Below are positions 31,456 through 52,421 of a stretch of DNA of 64,000 bases, piece by piece; positions within the stretch are counted from its first letter, which is position 1; the number at the start of each line of letters is the position of its first letter. The notes beneath the pieces were generated by a model, which ran no database searches, was not told the origin of the DNA, and saw nothing but the letters and a program-made list of their open reading frames with translations. The stretch is from positions 248,001 to 312,000 of the forward strand of contig VCMS01000016.1 in NCBI GenBank assembly GCA_022539475.1. Direction: 5' to 3'. The stretch comes from Gracilaria domingensis. Lineage: Eukaryota > Rhodophyta > Florideophyceae > Gracilariales > Gracilariaceae. The position numbers and the translations under genes are program-made.

Positions 31456-32430
31456 TCACGACGACGTGACAAACACATTGCGCACGCCCGCCATCCTTTT
31501 GCCCACAAAGCGGCACAGCCGCAAGCTGGGGTCCACGTACGTCACGTCCACCAGCCCCGAGGGGTCGAAAAACTCGAGCGGCAGCGCGAGCTGCATCTCG
31601 CTCACCAGCGGCCGCAAATCGGGCGGCAGCTGGTTGCGCTTGCCGTCGGCGCGCGGCAGGAACTTGACCACGTGCTCCTTGAGCTCGAGGCTGAGGCGGC
31701 TCGGCGACACGAACTGATACGAGCACACGATGCGAATGGACGCCTGCTCCAGCGCCGCGCCCTGCCGGTCCGGCAGCGTGAACAGCGCGTGGTTGACCAG
31801 CCGCCTCTCCGCCGGCTGCACCAGCTGCCCCATGCTGCGAATGCGCACGCTGCCGCGCGTGCCGGTGCGCGTGGACGAGAACAGCAGCGTCCACGCGCCG
31901 GCGATGGCCATCTCGGTGAACTCGCGCGTGACGGGCGCGACGGCGGCGGCCTCCAGCCGCCGAATGAGCGTCTCCGCCTCGCGCAGCTGCGCGGCGTCGT
32001 TGACCAGCGCGGCCAGCACGCGCAGCAGGCGGCGCCTGACGCGCGGCGCGTCGGCCGGCGCGCGCAGCGGCTGCGCGCCGTCGTCGGCGCGCGCGCCGCG
32101 CCGCGCCGCGCCGTTGCGCGCGTGCATGCGCGCCGCCGCCGCCGGCGCGGCGCGCGCGCAGCGCGCGGCGCACGGCGGCGCGATGCGCGGCGCGGGCGGC
32201 GGCGCGGGCGGCCGGAAGGCGGCGGCGGCGGCGAACCTCGGCGACATGCGGGCAGATGGCGGGCGCGCGCGCCGCCCACCGCGGCCGCGGCGCGCGCGCA
32301 TCTCGGCCGGCGCGCGCGCGCGCGCGAGAGGCGCGCCGCGCGCGCGCCAGCGCGCACAGCTGTAAACGGCGCGCGCGGCGTGACGGCGAGCGGCGGCGCG
32401 GAAGGCGGCGCGCGCGCGCGGTAAAATCAT
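31456..32430 (-). CDS. Plastid lipid-associated protein (fibrillin/PAP family)
   Basis: 324 residues if the ATG at 32430 is used; later in-frame ATGs exist, so the start is uncertain. Residues 1-125 are Arg/Ala/Pro-rich and include the presumed plastid transit peptide. The PAP/fibrillin domain occupies about 135-324: an N-terminal helix (ALVNDAAQLREAETLIRRLE), then the family start IAGAWTLLFSSTRTGTRGSV, beta-barrel strands (IRIVCSYQFVSPSRLSLEL) and the C-terminal DVTYVDPSLRLCRFV with VGKRMAGVRNVFV. The family binds lipids and isoprenoids in plastoglobules and thylakoids, and includes plastoquinone-related members. Codons are extremely GC-rich, like the two genes to the right. It is divergent from the histidine-repeat gene; the starts are 196 bp apart. 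Confidence 0.85.
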   Translation of the reverse strand: MILPRARAAFRAAARRHAARAVYSCARWRARGAPLARARAPAEMRARRGRGGRRARPPSARMSPRFAAAAAFRPPAPPPAPRIAPPCAARCARAAPAAAARMHARNGAARRGARADDGAQPLRAPADAPRVRRRLLRVLAALVNDAAQLREAETLIRRLEAAAVAPVTREFTEMAIAGAWTLLFSSTRTGTRGSVRIRSMGQLVQPAERRLVNHALFTLPDRQGAALEQASIRIVCSYQFVSPSRLSLELKEHVVKFLPRADGKRNQLPPDLRPLVSEMQLALPLEFFDPSGLVDVTYVDPSLRLCRFVGKRMAGVRNVFVTSS

Positions 32431-32494
32431 TCAAAGCGTGCGCGGCACGCGCGCGGCGTCGCGCGTACCGAACGCGCGCGCGCGCGCGGCGCGC

Positions 32495-32495
<1 letters not shown>

Positions 32496-32546
<51 letters not shown>
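32496..32546 (+). repeat. CGG trinucleotide repeat, about 17 units
   Basis: Perfect CGG array between the divergent fibrillin and histidine-repeat genes. It belongs to the promoter or 5' UTR of one of them. The same triplet recurs at 32791, 34134 and 34668. Confidence 0.95.
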
Positions 32547-32549
<3 letters not shown>

Positions 32550-32626
32550 GCGGCGCGCATAAAGCGCGGGCGCGGTGCGCGCGCGCGGCGCGCTCGCGCG
32601 CGCGGGGGGCGGACGGCGCGCACACG

Positions 32627-32786
32627 ATGGCGGAGAGCGCGCGCTCCTGCACGGTGGCGCCGTCGCGCGCGGCGACGGTGCCGTCGCCGCCGCTGCTGCG
32701 GCGCGTCATTGCCAAGCAGCAGCACCACCGGCTGCCCGCGCCGCCGCGCCGCGCGCGGCGCTACCTGCGGCTCGTGGCGCCGCCGC

Positions 32787-32825
<39 letters not shown>

Positions 32826-34132
32826 GCGACCTCAAGCTGCCGCCGATTGCGCTGCCCGGCTCGCAGCGCGCGTCGCGCGCGGTGGCGCACCACGCCGTCT
32901 CGCACGCGCTGTCGCACGGCGCGTCGCGCGCCGCGTGCCACCGAGCGCCGCACTCTGTTGCTGTGGCGCATGGCGGCTGCCACCCCGTCGCGCAGTCCGC
33001 CCCACACGCTGCATCGTACGCCGCGGCGCATCGTGTCGCGCACCCCGTCTCGCAGGCGGTCAGCCGTGCCGTTTCACGGCCGCTGTCGCACGCCGTCTCG
33101 CACGCCGTCTCGCACGCCGTCTCGCACGCTTTCCCGCAGTCTGCCACGCATCCCGTTTCGCACGCGGCGAGCCACGCGCTGTCGCACGCGGTTTCACACC
33201 CCGTTTCACACGCGGTTTCACACGCCGTCTCACACGCGGTTTCACACCCCGTTTCACACGCCGTGTCGCACGCCGTGTCGCACGCCGCCGCCTCGCACGC
33301 GGCGCCCTACTCTGTGGCGCAGCGCATGGCGCCGCCGCCGCCGCCGCAGCACGCGTATCGTCGCGCGCCTCACTACGCGCCTGCGCGCGTGCCCGCGTCG
33401 TTGGCGTCTACCGCGCTGCCGCCGCCACCGCGCCGGCTGTCGCTCCCGCCGGCGCCGACGCCGACGCCGGCGCCTCAGCGCACGTACATGGCGCCGCCTC
33501 GCTCGTCGCACCAACTGTACACTGCGCCGGCGGCGCAGCCGAGCCGGCCGTCGCGCGTGTACTGGACGGCGGCCGCTGGCGCGTACAACGGCGGCGCGGC
33601 GGTGGCGCACGCCGCCGTCGAGCCGCAGGCGCAGCCGCAGGCGTACAAGCGGCCGCGGACGGGCGGCGCGTACTGCGGCGCGTCGTCCAACGAGCGCGTG
33701 CAGATCAGCAACCTGACGTCGCGCGACGCGGGCGGCGGCGGCGCGTGCGACGGCGGCGCGTGCGACGGCGGCGCGCGCGAGGCGGCGCGGCTGTACGACG
33801 CGCGGCGCGTGCAGCTGACGCGCGACAAGGAGATGGAGAAGATCCAGGCGAGCGCGGCGTGCAAGGCGCGCGTGAAGATGAACCTGCGCGGGCGCACCAA
33901 GATCGAGCAGTGGCTGGGCAGCGAGCAGGTGGTGACGCGCGCGACGGCGCTGCTGGCGCGGCTGTTTGCGCTGGACGCGGCGATCCTGTCGTGCGACGCG
34001 GCCGAGCGCAAGGCGGGCGTGGAGAAGATGAGCAACGAGCAGCTGCGGCTGCTGGAGGCGCTCATGAACCGGCTGGCGCACAAGGGCGGCTACGCGAGCT
34101 GGCTGCTGCTCACGTCGCAACTGCTGCCGTGA
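32627..34132 (+). CDS. Histidine tetrapeptide-repeat protein (HAVS repeats), unknown
   Basis: 501 residues from the ATG at 32627; the frame is open further upstream only because of the CGG array. Residues 55-65 are a run of 11 Pro coded by GCC repeats. About 84-226 is a tetrapeptide array, unit H-A/P-V-S, nearly perfect in the middle (HAVSHAVSHAVS, from about 33085 to 33300) and decayed at both ends, placing His at every fourth position. A Pro/Ala/Tyr-rich region follows, with a basic patch KRPRTGG. The C-terminal 120 residues (about 380-501) are a charged helical domain (KEMEKIQASAACKARVKMNLR; EQVVTRATALLARLFALDAAI) that looks folded and is probably the functional core. No family is recognised. 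His at i, i+4 can bind transition metals on a helix; that is inference. The ABC gene follows 208 bp downstream on the same strand. Confidence 0.72.
32791..32824 (+). repeat. GCC repeat coding poly-Pro
   Basis: About 11 GCC units read as a proline run inside the histidine-repeat gene. Confidence 0.9.
32880..33305 (+). repeat. 12-bp coding tandem repeat (HAVS array)
   Basis: Roughly 35 tandem 12-base units around CACGCCGTCTCG. Central units are nearly identical, with CACCCCGTTTCA variants; flanking units have drifted. Codon frame is kept throughout. The pattern suggests growth by slippage or unequal exchange in the centre. Confidence 0.9.

Positions 34133-34133
<1 letters not shown>

Positions 34134-34172
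<39 letters not shown>
34134..34172 (+). repeat. CGG trinucleotide repeat, about 13 units
   Basis: Begins two bases after the stop codon of the histidine-repeat gene, hence in its 3' UTR or the leader of the ABC gene. Confidence 0.95.
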
Positions 34173-34340
34173 GGACCGCCGTGCGTCTTGTCTCGTCAGT
34201 GACGACTGATCGCCGCCATGGACGCAAACGAACACGTTTGATGAATGTTGATCTCAACGGTTTACGTAAAAAACAAAACGCCCAAGCTCTCAGAGAGACA
34301 GCGCCGTACCTTTGTACGCACTCCTCTCATCAGCACCACC

Positions 34341-34664
34341 ATGCTGCGCGTCGACGCCGTCAGCGTCACGTTCGCGTCCGGCGCCGCGCTGCGCCCGCTG
34401 TCGCTGCGCGTCGCGCCCGCCGAGATCGTGTTCCTGCGCGGCCCCAGCGGCGCCGGCAAGACCACCGCGCTGCGCTGCATCGCCAACCTGCTGCCGCTGC
34501 AGCGCGGCGCCGTCACGCTGGCCGGCCGCGCGCCGCGCCACACCGGCTTTGCGCGCTGGCGCCGCCGCGTCATGTACGTGCCGCAGCACCGCGTCGCGCT
34601 GCGCGGCACGCCGGCCGAGCTGCTCGCGCGCGCGCTGGCGTTCCGCGCCGCGCGGCAGCCCGGC

Positions 34665-34710
<46 letters not shown>

Positions 34711-35118
34711 GCGCGCTGCAGCAGTACGTGGCCGTGTGCGCGTCCATGGGGCTCTCGGCGCGCCAGGTGTGCGGCCAGCAGTGGGCTGAGTTATCGGGAG
34801 GTAAGTGATGAAAGCGCTTCCGCGCGCGCTTCTGCTGGCTATCCAACTAACATGTTGTTTGCTGAAAATGAAAAAGGGCAGGCGCAGCGCGCGCTGGTGG
34901 CGTTGTGTGTTGCGCTTCGGCCGGAGGTGTTGCTGCTCGACGAGCCGTCCAGCAGCTGCGACGAGCAGTCCACGCTGCTGATGGAACGCGCCATCAAGCG
35001 CGCCAACATCGCCGTCGTGTGGGTCTCGCACGACGCGGCGCAGGCGCAGCGCGTGGGCGCGCGCGTCGTGGACATGCTTCCACCTGGGCCGTGCGACAAG
35101 AGCTCACATGCTTTTTAG
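34341..35118 (+). CDS. Stand-alone ABC ATPase, FetA/STAR1-like, one intron
   Basis: Exons 34341-34800 and 34877-35118 give 233 residues. The 76-nt intron (GTAAGT...AAAAAG) interrupts the signature motif: splicing restores LSGGQAQRALVALCVAL. All ATPase motifs are present: Walker A GPSGAGKTT, Q-loop MYVPQ, signature LSGGQ, Walker B VLLLDEP, D-loop region SSSCDEQS and H-loop VWVSHD. Length and the blocks YVPQ..ALRGTPAELL and IAVVWVSHDAAQAQRVG fit the single-domain family of bacterial FetA (YbbL) and plant STAR1, which pairs with a separate membrane subunit (FetB/STAR2) in iron export or aluminium tolerance. No membrane partner is in the window. A run of 14 Pro sits in the helical subdomain between Q-loop and signature, which is unusual. 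Confidence 0.88.
34668..34710 (+). repeat. CCG repeat coding poly-Pro in the ABC ATPase
   Basis: About 14 triplets, read as prolines between Q-loop and signature motif. Confidence 0.95.
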
Positions 35119-48389: not shown

Positions 48390-51300
48390 CTAATGAACCA
48401 CCATACTCGCAACATTTGTAATATCTGATCGACAAACAGGGCAAATCTTGTCCGTGTTTTCTCTCGCAAGGTACTCCAAGATGCATGCTTCACAGAAGCG
48501 ATGACTACACGGAATTGTCAAGCAATCGGGAGGGTTATCCATACATATACAACACTCCTTATCACGCTCAGCATTTAGTTCCGATGAATTCGGTCCTGGG
48601 GTTCTACCATCCCTTTCATCCTTTAGAAGATCTTCAATAACCTTTTGGTAGTGAGGGGTTTCGGAAGTCCGGATTTCCGATCTCCTCCCAAACGAAGTCT
48701 GTGTTGTAGAGGATCTGCTGCGAGAATGTTTAGTGCGACTCCCCGGACGTCGGCTTGCGCTCTTATCGTTTCGCTGTCTATCCCTAGACGCAGATGGTCG
48801 TCCTCTCGAAACCGGTATGAACTCTTCATCATTCGTCAAGGCGATAACTGGATCGGACTGGGAACCCGCTCTCATTTCAAAACCTGTACCAAATTCTGAG
48901 CAAAGAGAGTTCAACGTCCCAAAAGCTGTTGTAATGTAGTTCGCAGAATCTTGAATGTTCCATCTAGTTAGATCAAGGTTGTCGACAATGTCTGAAGATC
49001 GCGCTTCACCACCAAAAAGGGAAAGGATGCGTCGAACTTCTGACAATAGAATCTCCGGTGACGGTCCATTCTTGGATCTGTGCCACGATCCTCCGTCCCC
49101 GGAGTGTAAACCCTCCCCAGAGTTAGGTGCCTCTGATTTCTCTTGTCCCCCTCCAGGAGTCGAAAGCGTTGTAGACTTTTCCTTTAAGAGCGCACCGTAC
49201 CTGCTGCCAGGGACAAAAGCCCCTTCGTCCTCTTCCGATGATGACGCTAAATCGATTTGAGGAGATACAGCCGGTTTTGGCACAGACTCTTTTCGTTTTC
49301 CTTTCGCCTTGCTTTTCGGTGAAGGCTCATCATTCCACTTCCCGCGTTTGTTGTCTTCTAATGACGCCAGCAAACGCTCCTGTTCGCGTATCTTCTGCAG
49401 TATTTTACCACGGTTCTTCCTCTTCTTAGACCACATGTTCATTGCGCGCCGGTAGAGGTCTATTGAGGCCACGACATGTGATTTCTGAGCCGAGCTAGGG
49501 TCTTTTGCTCTCTCCCTGTGTGCGTCGCCTTCGAGAAGAATAGCAAGGTACAATAAACTTTTTCGTTGCTCGGAGTCAAACGAATGATTTTCACTGCGCT
49601 CTTTTTGTTCTTGAGCGAGAGACTGTACTTTGTGGAGGTCACGGATGCAAGCATCCCACTTGCTCATCCGAAATCTCATATCCGCTCGTCTAAAGTACAA
49701 CCGCATCTTCCTGGGGAAAGCTTCAATAGATCTGGTGACTAATAATACACCCCTTTCCAAGTCTGCATCTTTTCTTGAGGTGGACATCTTCTCAAGTTCT
49801 CGACACCTTTGCCTGTATAGGACGTCTTCCAAATGCCTAACCTCAGCCACTTCCCCTATAATGGAATTCAGATTCGAAGGCATTGAAGTCGAACGAACAC
49901 GAAGAACATTCCTGGCAAAATGCAACATAACTTCCCTTATATTGCCAGCGAGGGTGTGGTACACCCACTCTTCTTCCTTAGCCAAATGCCCTGCCAAAAC
50001 CCAATTGCTCCAGTTCTCAGTGGCCGTGCCGTTATGACTCATAAGTTTTGCCACCTTGTCGACCGCACCCAAATCTGTCGAATCTGTTGAAGAACTTGGC
50101 ATTTTTGGTACAAGCCCAGAGACCCCAACAAATTGGGGAGAGCGAGAAATTCCTTTCCATTCTTGATACTTGATGCAATGGATAACATTTAACGTTTCAA
50201 GAAACATGTCAAACAATGTAGAGATCGCCAGAAGGTCAGTTCCCGTCTTCATATTCTTCAATAGCGCGTCGCAAAATGGCTTCTGAATGCTGTTGACAAA
50301 TCCTATTTTGTTATGCTGCCAGCAAACTTCGTTTTGTAACAAAATCAGAAATGCAACGCCATGTAGAAGTATGCCGTGTTCATTAGCGAGTTCATACCCA
50401 CTACCATAATAACCACTAGGGATCCATTCGAATAAAGCCAGGAAGTTTTTATCATCTACACGATCATCGTTGTGAACGTTCACAAAATATTCTTGCGCAT
50501 CTGCAACCTTCCGAGACTTAAAACGAAGCTTCCACATTCGACGAGCAAAGCATGGTCTGCAGCTACGGTCACAGCCTTTATTCTTCTTCTTACCTCCTTG
50601 AGATTGCAATCGAGTATGAGCCCCAAAGTAACGAGTAAAGTCCAGAGTACCAGTCGACTGAAAAGAACTTCCGAAAATTTCTGTTGTGCATCTAGATAGA
50701 AATGTGTCGTTTCCTGGCGGCAAAGCTTTGCTTGCTTCCTCTAGCAAATCCGTGTCTCGCTGCTTTCGAATACGGGAAAAGTCTAGCTCAGAAACTGGCT
50801 CCTCGTTATCGGAGTCACACACCGTACGGCTCTTTCCAGGTTGAATCGCAGTCCATTGGTTCTTTGACACGAAGCTTTTGAGCTCCGCTACCAGTTTGTA
50901 GTACTCCGCATCATTTTCAGTTTTTGTTTCACCTAGATTACTAGTTAACCCATTGGAGGACTGAGCAGAGCGTAGGGCATCTACAGCTTCGTTCATGACC
51001 AAGAGGTTCTTGAACTTGCGCATGGATGGTTTGGATTTTCCCAAGGTTCTATTCTGAGGTGATTCAGATCTGGACGAACCGCTTCTTTTCCCTCCTCTCC
51101 TCGACCGAGAAGGCGAAGAGGATCCCAGTGATGTCTTCCTCCGAGTCTCCGAATACTGTTCTAGTTTGAAAGGATTGACTGCCATAAAGCCGACTTCATC
51201 GTTCACAGATTCTTTCTCTTTTACAGATGGGAAATTTTTGTCGTCATCGGACGTGGCCACTAAATCCGGGAGATCATCCGCGTCCACTAAATCCGGGAGT

Positions 51301-52421
51301 TCCTCCGTGTCAACCAAATCTGGGAGTTCCTCTGTGTCCACCGAATCCGGGTGTTCCTCCCTGGCCGCTGAATCCGGCCCTTGGCCATGATTACGTCCAC
51401 AGGTGCATCCATAATTTGTATACTCTGAACTTTTGTTGTCATAAAGGTAAGAATCGTCGCCGAAGTAGAAGCTTTCCTCAGACTCCTCTCCATCTCCGTC
51501 GGAACAAGAATCGCTGTCAATCTGCCATATCACGTCGCCATCATCATGGCCACAAGCGCCCATGCCCATGTGATACACGTGATGACACAAGTGCTCCACA
51601 TTTACCACAAGTGTCGGATTACCATCCTCTTCGGAATTCAGGTCATAATCGTCAATTCCAGTGTTAATCTCTCGAAGATAGGAGCTGGGTGTGTGCGGGT
51701 GCAGAAAGCGTCCACGCTCTTCCTGATACGGGAAATCTGCTGGCCGTCCAGGCCCTCTTTGACTATGTCCAGGGTCTTCAACAGGAGGTGATGAATCTCG
51801 TCTCGCGATCTCAAGATCGATTTCAAATCGGCGCAATTTGTTAACAGCTTCTGTGATTGAGACCCTCGTATCCCTTTGTGTGCTGAGCTTGTCCTTGATA
51901 CTGACAAGAGCACTATAGGCACTCAAAGCTTCCTCAAAATTACGAAGCTTAACTTGCGCGTTTGCAAGAAGAATGAGCACCTGAAAATGCAAACCCGTGT
52001 TTTCCCGATAGTACAGGTTTGGAAATGCAGAGAAGCACAGCTCGCATATTTCAAGACATCGACGATAGCGTCTGAGATTATACATGCATGTGGCGCGATT
52101 AGAGAGCAGAGTAGCATCGAACGGGTTAAAGAGAGAGGCCATTCTATAACGTTGATTAGCTTCTTTGTATCTGCCCTGGCGGAACATACGAACAGCGGTG
52201 TCTCTGAGCATCGTAGCGAACTGAAAGGTATCCGGAGGGCCGTCATAATCCTTAAAAACCTCGAGGCATTCATTCTCAAGAACATACTGTGCATGAGGAG
52301 AAATGCGAAGTCCTCGACGTTCACTGCGGATGAGAAAGGAGGCTACGGCCTGCAGACGGCTACGCGCATCGCGCCTGCGACGTCGCCGCTCCCTCGCGTT
52401 ATCAGGGTATGAGGAATACAT
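48390..52421 (-). CDS. TPR and RING-finger protein, putative E3 ubiquitin ligase
   Basis: 1343 residues in one frame. The N-terminus is Arg-rich. About 65-200 has TPR-like helices (TAVRMFRQGRYKEANQRYRM; ATLLSNRATCMYNLRRYRRC). An acidic region at about 290-400 includes a nine-residue tandem repeat (LVDTEELPD). About 610-880 is a long helical/mixed region with a Cys-rich patch (GCDRSCRPCFARRMW). Around 890-1020 a second TPR-like segment appears (LLVTRSIEAFPRKMRLYFRRADM). The C-terminus is a complete C3HC4 RING at 1290-1330 (CCIC, CSHRFCEAC, CPVC). RING domains recruit E2 enzymes, so a ubiquitin ligase with TPR substrate- or chaperone-binding arms is inferred. The exact family is not recognised. 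Confidence 0.88.
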   Translation of the reverse strand: MYSSYPDNARERRRRRRDARSRLQAVASFLIRSERRGLRISPHAQYVLENECLEVFKDYDGPPDTFQFATMLRDTAVRMFRQGRYKEANQRYRMASLFNPFDATLLSNRATCMYNLRRYRRCLEICELCFSAFPNLYYRENTGLHFQVLILLANAQVKLRNFEEALSAYSALVSIKDKLSTQRDTRVSITEAVNKLRRFEIDLEIARRDSSPPVEDPGHSQRGPGRPADFPYQEERGRFLHPHTPSSYLREINTGIDDYDLNSEEDGNPTLVVNVEHLCHHVYHMGMGACGHDDGDVIWQIDSDSCSDGDGEESEESFYFGDDSYLYDNKSSEYTNYGCTCGRNHGQGPDSAAREEHPDSVDTEELPDLVDTEELPDLVDADDLPDLVATSDDDKNFPSVKEKESVNDEVGFMAVNPFKLEQYSETRRKTSLGSSSPSRSRRGGKRSGSSRSESPQNRTLGKSKPSMRKFKNLLVMNEAVDALRSAQSSNGLTSNLGETKTENDAEYYKLVAELKSFVSKNQWTAIQPGKSRTVCDSDNEEPVSELDFSRIRKQRDTDLLEEASKALPPGNDTFLSRCTTEIFGSSFQSTGTLDFTRYFGAHTRLQSQGGKKKNKGCDRSCRPCFARRMWKLRFKSRKVADAQEYFVNVHNDDRVDDKNFLALFEWIPSGYYGSGYELANEHGILLHGVAFLILLQNEVCWQHNKIGFVNSIQKPFCDALLKNMKTGTDLLAISTLFDMFLETLNVIHCIKYQEWKGISRSPQFVGVSGLVPKMPSSSTDSTDLGAVDKVAKLMSHNGTATENWSNWVLAGHLAKEEEWVYHTLAGNIREVMLHFARNVLRVRSTSMPSNLNSIIGEVAEVRHLEDVLYRQRCRELEKMSTSRKDADLERGVLLVTRSIEAFPRKMRLYFRRADMRFRMSKWDACIRDLHKVQSLAQEQKERSENHSFDSEQRKSLLYLAILLEGDAHRERAKDPSSAQKSHVVASIDLYRRAMNMWSKKRKNRGKILQKIREQERLLASLEDNKRGKWNDEPSPKSKAKGKRKESVPKPAVSPQIDLASSSEEDEGAFVPGSRYGALLKEKSTTLSTPGGGQEKSEAPNSGEGLHSGDGGSWHRSKNGPSPEILLSEVRRILSLFGGEARSSDIVDNLDLTRWNIQDSANYITTAFGTLNSLCSEFGTGFEMRAGSQSDPVIALTNDEEFIPVSRGRPSASRDRQRNDKSASRRPGSRTKHSRSRSSTTQTSFGRRSEIRTSETPHYQKVIEDLLKDERDGRTPGPNSSELNAERDKECCICMDNPPDCLTIPCSHRFCEACILEYLARENTDKICPVCRSDITNVASMVVH
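51259..51375 (-). repeat. 27-bp coding tandem repeat (LVDTEELPD)
   Basis: Four to five tandem 27-base units in the TPR-RING gene, each coding nine acidic residues. Units differ by a few bases. Confidence 0.85.

What the first reader, a model, noticed from the sequence alone, without database searches (positions are those of the whole stretch)
32880..33305. Protein repeat that places histidine at every fourth residue
About 35 tetrapeptide units (H-A/P-V-S) form one block, nearly perfect in the centre and decayed at both ends. On a helix, i/i+4 histidines line up on one face, a classic metal-binding geometry; the Pro-containing units would break it into short segments. The array is in frame, and the non-repeat C-terminal 120 residues look folded. 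I know no described family with this arrangement.
Basis: partly seen in the sequence, partly recalled or inferred. Interest (0 to 1): 0.7.

Follow-up and report, generated by a model that had tools for sequence, protein, structure and literature searches.

The report
Histidine-rich tetrapeptide array, red-algal protein
A red-algal gene of unknown function in an unusually GC-rich stretch of DNA encodes a long run of four-residue units that mostly begin with histidine; it looks like a low-complexity segment born from a short DNA repeat, and metal binding is possible but unsupported.

Summary
Window 32627-34132 (+) is a 501-codon ORF; residues 89-222 (32891-33292) are 33 units of consensus H-A-V-S, H leading 25 of 32 four-residue units. 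Codon-phase GC fixes the frame. Decay is one-sided: the C-terminal 17 units are near perfect (H 16 of 17), the N-terminal half is decayed, mostly AT to GC (15 against 2). The host fits a red alga (plastid phycobiliprotein genes; Gracilaria-like size). The gene sits in a ~3-kb island of up to 86% GC in a ~50% GC genome. The last ~116 residues are predicted helical; no relative was found, but no other eukaryote could be searched. Best reading: a His-rich low-complexity segment, born as an in-frame 12-bp minisatellite, partly held by selection, giving weak multivalent, perhaps pH- or metal-sensitive contacts in a probably nuclear protein. A close rival is an unselected by-product: the same genome has other 12-bp arrays coding other tetrads, and bacteria have H-x-V-S arrays partly outside genes. 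A metal-binding helix is not excluded, but Pro/Val/Ser content and 40-degree drift per unit speak against one aligned face.

The parts
32627..34132 (+). ORF P0001, 501 codons plus stop, carrying the array; first ATG after the in-frame stop
   Evidence: GC by codon position 0.754/0.613/0.912
32891..33292 (+). 33-unit array, consensus CAC GCC GTC TCG = H-A-V-S (A or P at position 2)
32891..33088 (+). decayed N-terminal half: 15 four-residue units (H 9 of 15) plus one six-residue unit
   Evidence: non-consensus changes at codon positions 1-2: 15 AT to GC, 2 GC to AT, 13 neutral
33089..33292 (+). near-perfect C-terminal half: 17 units (H 16 of 17), pN 0.19, pS 0.60
32792..32824 (+). run of 11 prolines before the array, from (CCG)n
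33647..33658 (+). KRPR (residues 341-344), a basic cluster of the K-[KR]-X-[KR] nuclear-signal type (motif recalled)
   Evidence: sequence
33723..33812 (+). 15-bp repeat in the Gly/Asp linker (GGACDGGACDGG)
33782..34129 (+). C-terminal segment, residues 386-501, predicted helical; GC3 114 of 116
   Evidence: only itself in the own genome; no Pfam family above cut-off; no PDB sequence match
31500..34850 (.). GC island (68-86% GC per 500 bp, CpG observed/expected 1.47) that holds the gene and parts of its two neighbours

Best explanation
Shown: an in-frame 12-bp tandem array encodes H-A/P-V-S units inside a gene that has no second copy in this genome, in an extreme GC island. Inferred: a 12-bp unit multiplied in frame, and the resulting segment is kept as a histidine-rich, acid-free, mostly disordered spacer or adhesive segment of a probably nuclear protein. 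Its 28 imidazoles at regular pitch give weak multivalent contacts (self, RNA, phosphoprotein tails or metal ions) that respond to pH or Zn/Cu. The helical C-terminal segment anchors the protein to a partner. The N-terminal half of the array is being eroded by the local pressure towards GC (H to R, V to A, S to A or P), while the C-terminal half is held by selection on the protein. It works like the histidine-rich segments of nuclear regulators such as cyclin T1, without being a member of that family.
For: His periodicity far above chance. Array (residues 85-228): 28 His, 0 Asp/Glu, 5 Lys/Arg. Units differ at synonymous sites as much in the near-perfect half as in the decayed half (pS 0.597 and 0.592), but much less at non-synonymous sites (pN 0.189 and 0.424; 1 of 1000 label permutations reached that difference), so the near-perfect half is not simply younger DNA. 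Two Ser codons in the array are AGC rather than TCN. The irregular units (a six-residue unit and a five-residue step at the end) keep the frame. KRPR cluster and a basic first 84 residues (15 K/R, 2 D/E). In human cells a minimum of 6 His is needed for nuclear-speckle targeting, and the authors write that spacing may matter more than number (PMC2644819, passages). Cyclin T1 lacking its His-rich domain is unable to form droplets (PMC8257543, a review, passages).
Against: No homologue, transcript, localisation or binding data; nuclear placement rests on a short basic motif. The selection evidence is soft: I split the array after seeing it, unit pairs are not independent, a minus-strand frame gives nearly the same pN/pS (0.39 against 0.32), and bacterial 12-bp arrays found by the same kind of pattern also show low pN/pS where there is hardly a gene (L023, L058). 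Other 12-bp arrays of this genome code other tetrads without His, so the process that makes such arrays is not tied to His. Longest His run is 2, so it is no poly-His tract. GC3 in the array is 106 of 134 against 351 of 367 elsewhere in the ORF, which suggests the array is younger than the rest or not at codon equilibrium.
Confidence: 0.37

Rival explanations
1. The array is a by-product. A 12-bp GC-rich minisatellite expanded in frame and is tolerated as a linker; its amino acids have no specific function.
For: The same genome has 12-bp arrays of 21.0 copies on C311 (longest frame A-A-P-S, 202 codons) and 16.9 copies on C24 (D-V-Q-S in a 648-codon ORF), so in-frame 12-bp expansion recurs with other amino acids. 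The island itself carries (GCG)n, (CCG)n and 15-bp repeats, and the neighbouring ABC gene a run of 14 prolines. Array codon choice differs from the rest of the gene (Val GTC 9, GTT 8, GTG 3 inside; GTG 14, GTC 2 outside), as expected for copies of a founder unit. H-x-V-S 12-bp arrays recur in bacterial DNA, 21 of 44 loci in ORFs under 100 codons.
Against: Amino-acid conservation in the C-terminal half at high synonymous divergence; frame-keeping irregular units; His is the best kept unit position. Period-12 arrays of 4 or more copies are not common: none in 200 kb sampled outside the window.
Confidence: 0.36
2. Metal-binding comb: i/i+4 His pairs in short helical segments, broken at Pro, bind Zn, Ni or Cu for storage, buffering or metal-gated assembly.
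For: 19 His pairs at i/i+4; His is the best kept unit position (25 of 32, against S 22, A 20, V 18); AlphaFold draws two helices over the array.
Against: The helix prediction is from one sequence at block pLDDT 44-69; 10 Pro in residues 85-228 and Val/Ser-rich units are poor helix formers. The two neighbours scanned are a PAP/fibrillin gene and an ABC ATPase whose substrate is unknown, so no metal link is seen. No Cys or acidic residue in the good half.
Confidence: 0.16
3. Silk- or suckerin-like structural segment: in an extended strand Ala/Ser lie on one face and His/Val on the other, giving beta-sheet or pH-dependent assembly.
For: Alternation of small (A/P, S) and bulky (H, V) residues follows directly from the unit; the composition recalls squid suckerin peptides rich in A, V, S, H (recalled; papers seen in a listing only).
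Against: No hydrophobic signal-peptide-like stretch at the N-terminus by eye; Pro at position 2 in 6 and at position 4 in 3 of 32 units breaks strands; the KRPR cluster and charged helical C-terminus suggest an intracellular protein.
Confidence: 0.07
4. The ORF is not translated: it is a chance open frame in GC-rich DNA.
For: All frames are long here; no transcript data; no homologue.
Against: Strong codon-phase GC signal (0.69/0.45/0.98) through the C-terminal part, third-position excess of differences in the array (35 of 54), one frame kept across the whole array.
Confidence: 0.04

Closest known systems
Histidine-rich domain of cyclin T1 (P-TEFb)
   Same: His-rich, low-complexity segment within a larger disordered region (PMC8257543, passages)
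   Different: No Pfam family at E up to 1 in P0001, so no cyclin box seen; the cyclin T1 stretch is irregular with His runs (PMC2644819, passage), here it is a tetrad
Homopolymeric His-tract proteins that go to nuclear speckles (Salichs et al. 2009, PMC2644819, passages)
   Same: His repeat with Ala, Ser and Pro around it in a basic, probably nuclear protein
   Different: Longest His run is 2; those proteins have 5 or more in a row
NCBIfam NF033849 ser_rich_anae_1 (anaerobe serine-rich protein)
   Same: Array scores E 1.1e-10 against part of the model
   Different: 39.6 bits against a cut-off of 650; only residues 89-221 match, so probably compositional
Bacterial 12-bp H-x-V-S arrays (for example MAG JAFDZT, Bacteroidetes SZAS-90)
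   Same: Same tetrad read from a 12-bp tandem repeat; position 2 often A, P, S or T
   Different: In that MAG at many places (11 loci); the algal H-A/P-V-S array is at one place only in its genome
Other 12-bp arrays of the same genome (C311, C24)
   Same: 12-bp period, about 17-21 copies
   Different: Longest frames encode A-A-P-S and D-V-Q-S tetrads without His
Sand-rat GC-rich regions (PDX1; PMC7574485, abstract)
   Same: Extreme local GC with divergent proteins (analogy for the island)
   Different: Animal locus; biased gene conversion was not tested here

Membership tests
Homopolymeric His-tract protein | Run of 5 or more consecutive His | tested here: not met
   Longest His run in the 501 residues is 2
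Cyclin T | Cyclin box | tested here: not met
   No Pfam family at E up to 1 in P0001; only sub-cut-off GAF_3 and AnfG_VnfG for the C-terminal piece
NF033849 ser_rich_anae_1 | Whole-protein score above 650 bits | tested here: not met
   39.6 bits, residues 89-221 only
Three-helix-bundle families (YlaN, Avd, BAG) for the C-terminal segment | Same fold by structure comparison | tested here: inconclusive
Metal-binding His protein | Binds Zn, Ni or Cu | not testable with these tools
   Only i/i+4 spacing shown
Suckerin/silk | Secreted, signal peptide | tested here: inconclusive
   No hydrophobic N-terminal stretch by eye; no predictor run
Nuclear protein | Nuclear localisation | not testable with these tools
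   Only a KRPR cluster seen

The most novel reading that the evidence does not exclude
A new kind of histidine comb: a selected array of more than 25 imidazoles, mostly at fixed pitch 4, that acts as one graded pH or metal switch on the assembly of a nuclear protein, held in its C-terminal half against strong local GC pressure that is visibly dissolving the other half.
Probability: 0.12. Interest if true: 0.6.

Novelty: new variant of a known kind. Interest (0 to 1): 0.3.

Why it matters
If the pitch is selected, it would be a simple natural sequence for pH- or metal-gated assembly, easy to rebuild as a peptide. The locus would also show selection on a protein repeat against a local drive to GC, with a decayed and a kept half side by side. 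If not, it is a clear example of how 12-bp repeats and a GC island make low-complexity protein and may hide homology.

Tried and rejected
Homologues of the C-terminal 116 residues were sought in the own genome (only itself), Pfam (nothing above cut-off), NCBIfam (none), PDB sequences (none at E up to 10) and viral contigs (none). The whole protein against PDB sequences gave 6 weak hits to residues 19-138, best E 0.057. No eukaryotic collection beyond the own genome was open, so absence of a homologue is not shown. Structure: the C-terminal piece alone gave pLDDT 58.8; the full length gave 54.1, with 67-85 by blocks over residues 381-500. Foldseek and VIA-align gave no convincing match. Families not listed there are not excluded.

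Array elsewhere: own genome by pattern, 9 overlapping hits, all in this array. By protein there were 8 matches at E up to 10: one is the gene itself. The other seven (best E 0.004) are other low-complexity stretches. Four are 8-residue repeats on C128. C311 is a Q-Q-H-P frame with 19 lag-4 His pairs and no Met, inside a 12-bp array whose longest frame is A-A-P-S. C24 is an E-H-R-F frame on the strand opposite to a 648-codon ORF. C303 is a short H-A-I-x frame. I do not regard them as paralogues, but they show that pitch-4 His frames arise from other 12-bp arrays. This made me lower the best explanation from a drafted 0.40 to 0.37, the metal comb from 0.17 to 0.16 and the novel case from 0.13 to 0.12, and raise the by-product rival from 0.33 to 0.36 and the untranslated rival from 0.03 to 0.04; interest went from 0.33 to 0.30.

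Considered and dropped: recent DNA homogenisation as the only cause of the near-perfect half, because pS there equals that of the decayed half. Codon scrambling to avoid recombination, because the units at residues 155, 159 and 163 are identical in DNA. pN/pS as proof of selection: weakened by the minus-strand frame and the bacterial arrays. A simulation with random changes gave lower amino-acid identity between units than observed (0.37 against 0.64, 0 of 2000), but it treats units as independent. In one search the line 'PAP 3p part' was read in a wrong phase and was not used.

Literature: searches. The search with at least two of 'histidine-rich', 'tetrapeptide repeats', 'every fourth residue' gave one unrelated paper; all of 'histidine-rich protein', 'Rhodophyta', 'tandem repeats' gave none. 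This is an open-licence library only, so it does not show that the repeat is unpublished.

Full report
What is there. Window 32627-34132 on the + strand is an ORF of 501 codons. Residues 89-222 (window 32891-33292) are 33 head-to-tail units of consensus H-A-V-S, 32 of four residues and one of six. Tandem Repeats Finder reports a 12-bp period over 33086-33287 with 16.8 copies. H leads 25 of the 32 four-residue units; the other seven have R (3), Q (3) or Y (1). Six of these seven codons are one base from a His codon, the seventh (CGG) two (codons). At lag 4 there are 19 His pairs in residues 86-230, with 5.1 expected and at most 15 in 20,000 permutations.

Is it coding? ORF length cannot decide. 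From about 31.5 to 34.85 kb the DNA has 68-86% GC per 500 bp, with CpG observed/expected 1.47; the three + frames are open for 548 to 582 codons and the minus frames carry ORFs of 115 to 567 codons. The codon phase does decide for the gene. GC by codon position is 0.69/0.45/0.98 in the last 116 codons and 0.82/0.69/0.98 before the array. In a 20-unit stretch (33041-33280), 35 of 54 differences from the consensus are at codon position 3. The irregular units keep the frame.

How the array evolved. I split the 32 four-residue units into an N-terminal 15 and a C-terminal 17 (the six-residue unit was dropped; the split was made after seeing the array). Synonymous difference between units is the same in both halves (pS 0.592 and 0.597), non-synonymous difference is not (pN 0.424 and 0.189); 1 of 1000 label permutations reached this difference. 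The near-perfect half is therefore not merely a young copy. In the decayed half, non-consensus changes at codon positions 1 and 2 run 15 AT to GC, 2 GC to AT, 13 neutral; in the kept half 5, 2 and 5 (AGC serines set aside). The reading is that local pressure towards GC turns H into R, V into A and S into A or P, and that this is resisted in the C-terminal half. Against a strong claim: a minus-strand frame gives a ratio of 0.39 (the coding frame 0.32; the other four frames 1.16 to 4.90), and some of the 44 bacterial arrays, with hardly an ORF, also show low ratios (L023 pN/pS 0.09/0.32, L058 0.12/0.38). The search pattern that found those loci favours this. GC3 is lower in the array (106 of 134) than in the rest of the ORF (351 of 367; Fisher p 8e-8), and its codon choice differs from the rest, as for copies of a founder unit that have not reached the gene's codon bias.

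The host. The own assembly has 77.9 Mb in 680 contigs. Contig C680 carries 8 full-length phycobiliprotein matches; in all there are 12 matches to PF00502. This fits a red-algal plastid; other phycobilisome-bearing algae were not formally excluded. GC is 50.3% over 200 kb sampled from 20 places. Size and GC fit Gracilaria (76.07 Mb and 48.9% for G. chilensis; 78 Mb for G. domingensis; PMC10388701, passages). The species is my inference.

The rest of the protein. The first 84 residues are basic (15 K/R, 2 D/E) and hold a run of 11 prolines. The array has 28 His, 5 K/R and no D/E (residues 85-228). A KRPR cluster lies at residues 341-344. Residues 371-501 are charged (21 K/R, 15 D/E) and are predicted helical with block pLDDT 67-85 over 381-500 in the full-length model, though only 58.8 when the last 116 are folded alone. 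No sequence or fold match is convincing. Genes in extreme GC regions can become aberrantly divergent, as in gerbils (PMC7574485, abstract); this may be why no relative shows, but biased gene conversion was not tested here, and no other eukaryote could be searched.

Uniqueness. The H-A/P-V-S array occurs once in the own genome. In 200 kb sampled from 20 places of the genome no other period-12 array of 4 or more copies was found, and none of the 780 windows of 500 bp there exceeds 76% GC. But the weak matches led to other 12-bp arrays in the genome: 21.0 copies on C311, 16.9 on C24 and 5.3 on C303. The longest frames read A-A-P-S on C311 (202 codons) and D-V-Q-S on C24 (648 codons), while another frame of C311 reads Q-Q-H-P with 19 lag-4 His pairs, and the strand opposite at C24 reads E-H-R-F with 12. 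So 12-bp in-frame expansion recurs here with other amino acids, and a pitch-4 His frame can appear without being the coding one. In the prokaryote collection, three H-x-V-S units in a row (x with a middle C in its codon) occur in 44 stretches, 11 of them from one Bacteroidetes MAG; 21 of 44 lie in ORFs under 100 codons, at least one of these cut off by the locus end. In viral contigs there are 2.

Mechanism. Shown: sequence, frame, periodicity, composition, GC island. Inferred: disorder, nuclear placement, multivalent or pH/metal-sensitive contacts. The helix-face idea fails in its simple form, because 4 residues turn 400 degrees, so the His stripe drifts by 40 degrees per unit and circles the helix in 9 units; pairs i/i+4 remain possible locally. 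The AlphaFold helices over the array rest on one sequence at block pLDDT 44-69, and such predictions are unsafe for repeats (PMC11795689, listing). His-rich segments that drive nuclear localisation or condensation are known (PMC2644819 passages; PMC8257543 passages). This array resembles them in composition but fails the defining His run, so I call it 'works like', not 'is'.

Verdict. A real and unusual protein repeat, at one place in one genome; probably a His-rich low-complexity segment born from a 12-bp minisatellite. Whether selection keeps it for its histidines (0.37) or merely tolerates it (0.36) is nearly even on this evidence; metal binding is open; interest moderate to low until relatives are compared.

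Noticed in passing
window 31500-34850: Extreme GC island (68-86% GC per 500 bp) in a genome of about 50% GC, spanning this gene and parts of two neighbours; GC returns to normal outside, and 0 of 780 windows sampled elsewhere exceed 76%. Possibly a hotspot of GC-biased change comparable to the sand-rat PDX1 region.
   Followed up: partly
window 34338-34808: ABC-transporter ATPase gene (Pfam ABC_tran) with a run of 14 prolines (34668-34709) inside the ATPase domain; the rest of the domain appears in another frame at about 34870-35115, so probably after an intron.
   Followed up: no
window 31456-32430 (-): PAP/fibrillin gene, head to head with the array gene, 196 bp apart if both first ATGs are used; its N-terminal ~120 residues are Ala/Arg/Pro-rich low complexity.
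   Followed up: no
L025, L027, L028, L031, L033, L036, L040, L046, L048, L049, L059: One Bacteroidetes MAG (JAFDZT, SZAS-90) carries many 12-bp arrays with units like CACGAAGTGTCC or CACTCCGTGTCG; at least four (L031, L036, L048, L059) sit in frame inside cyclase-like genes (label recalled) beside the same motif. Similar arrays occur in Acidobacteria, Fluviicola, Planctomycetes and others. Possibly a dispersed dodecamer repeat of bacteria.
   Followed up: partly
L011 1484-1735 (G000:C311) and L016 1571-1773 (G000:C24): Two more 12-bp arrays of the same genome, 21.0 and 16.9 copies; longest frames give A-A-P-S (202 codons) and D-V-Q-S (648 codons) tetrads, while other frames give Q-Q-H-P and E-H-R-F with His at pitch 4. 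The genome seems prone to in-frame 12-bp expansion.
   Followed up: partly
L012, L014, L015, L017 (G000:C128, 184-191 kb): Long stretch of A-L-S-F-x-x-A/I-x 8-residue frames; at L012 it overlaps a Ser/Pro-rich ORF of 823 codons.
   Followed up: no
window 51252-51377: 27-bp repeat, 4.7 copies, in the large minus-strand ORF 48390-52421, encoding an acidic E-L-P-D-L-V-D repeat.
   Followed up: no
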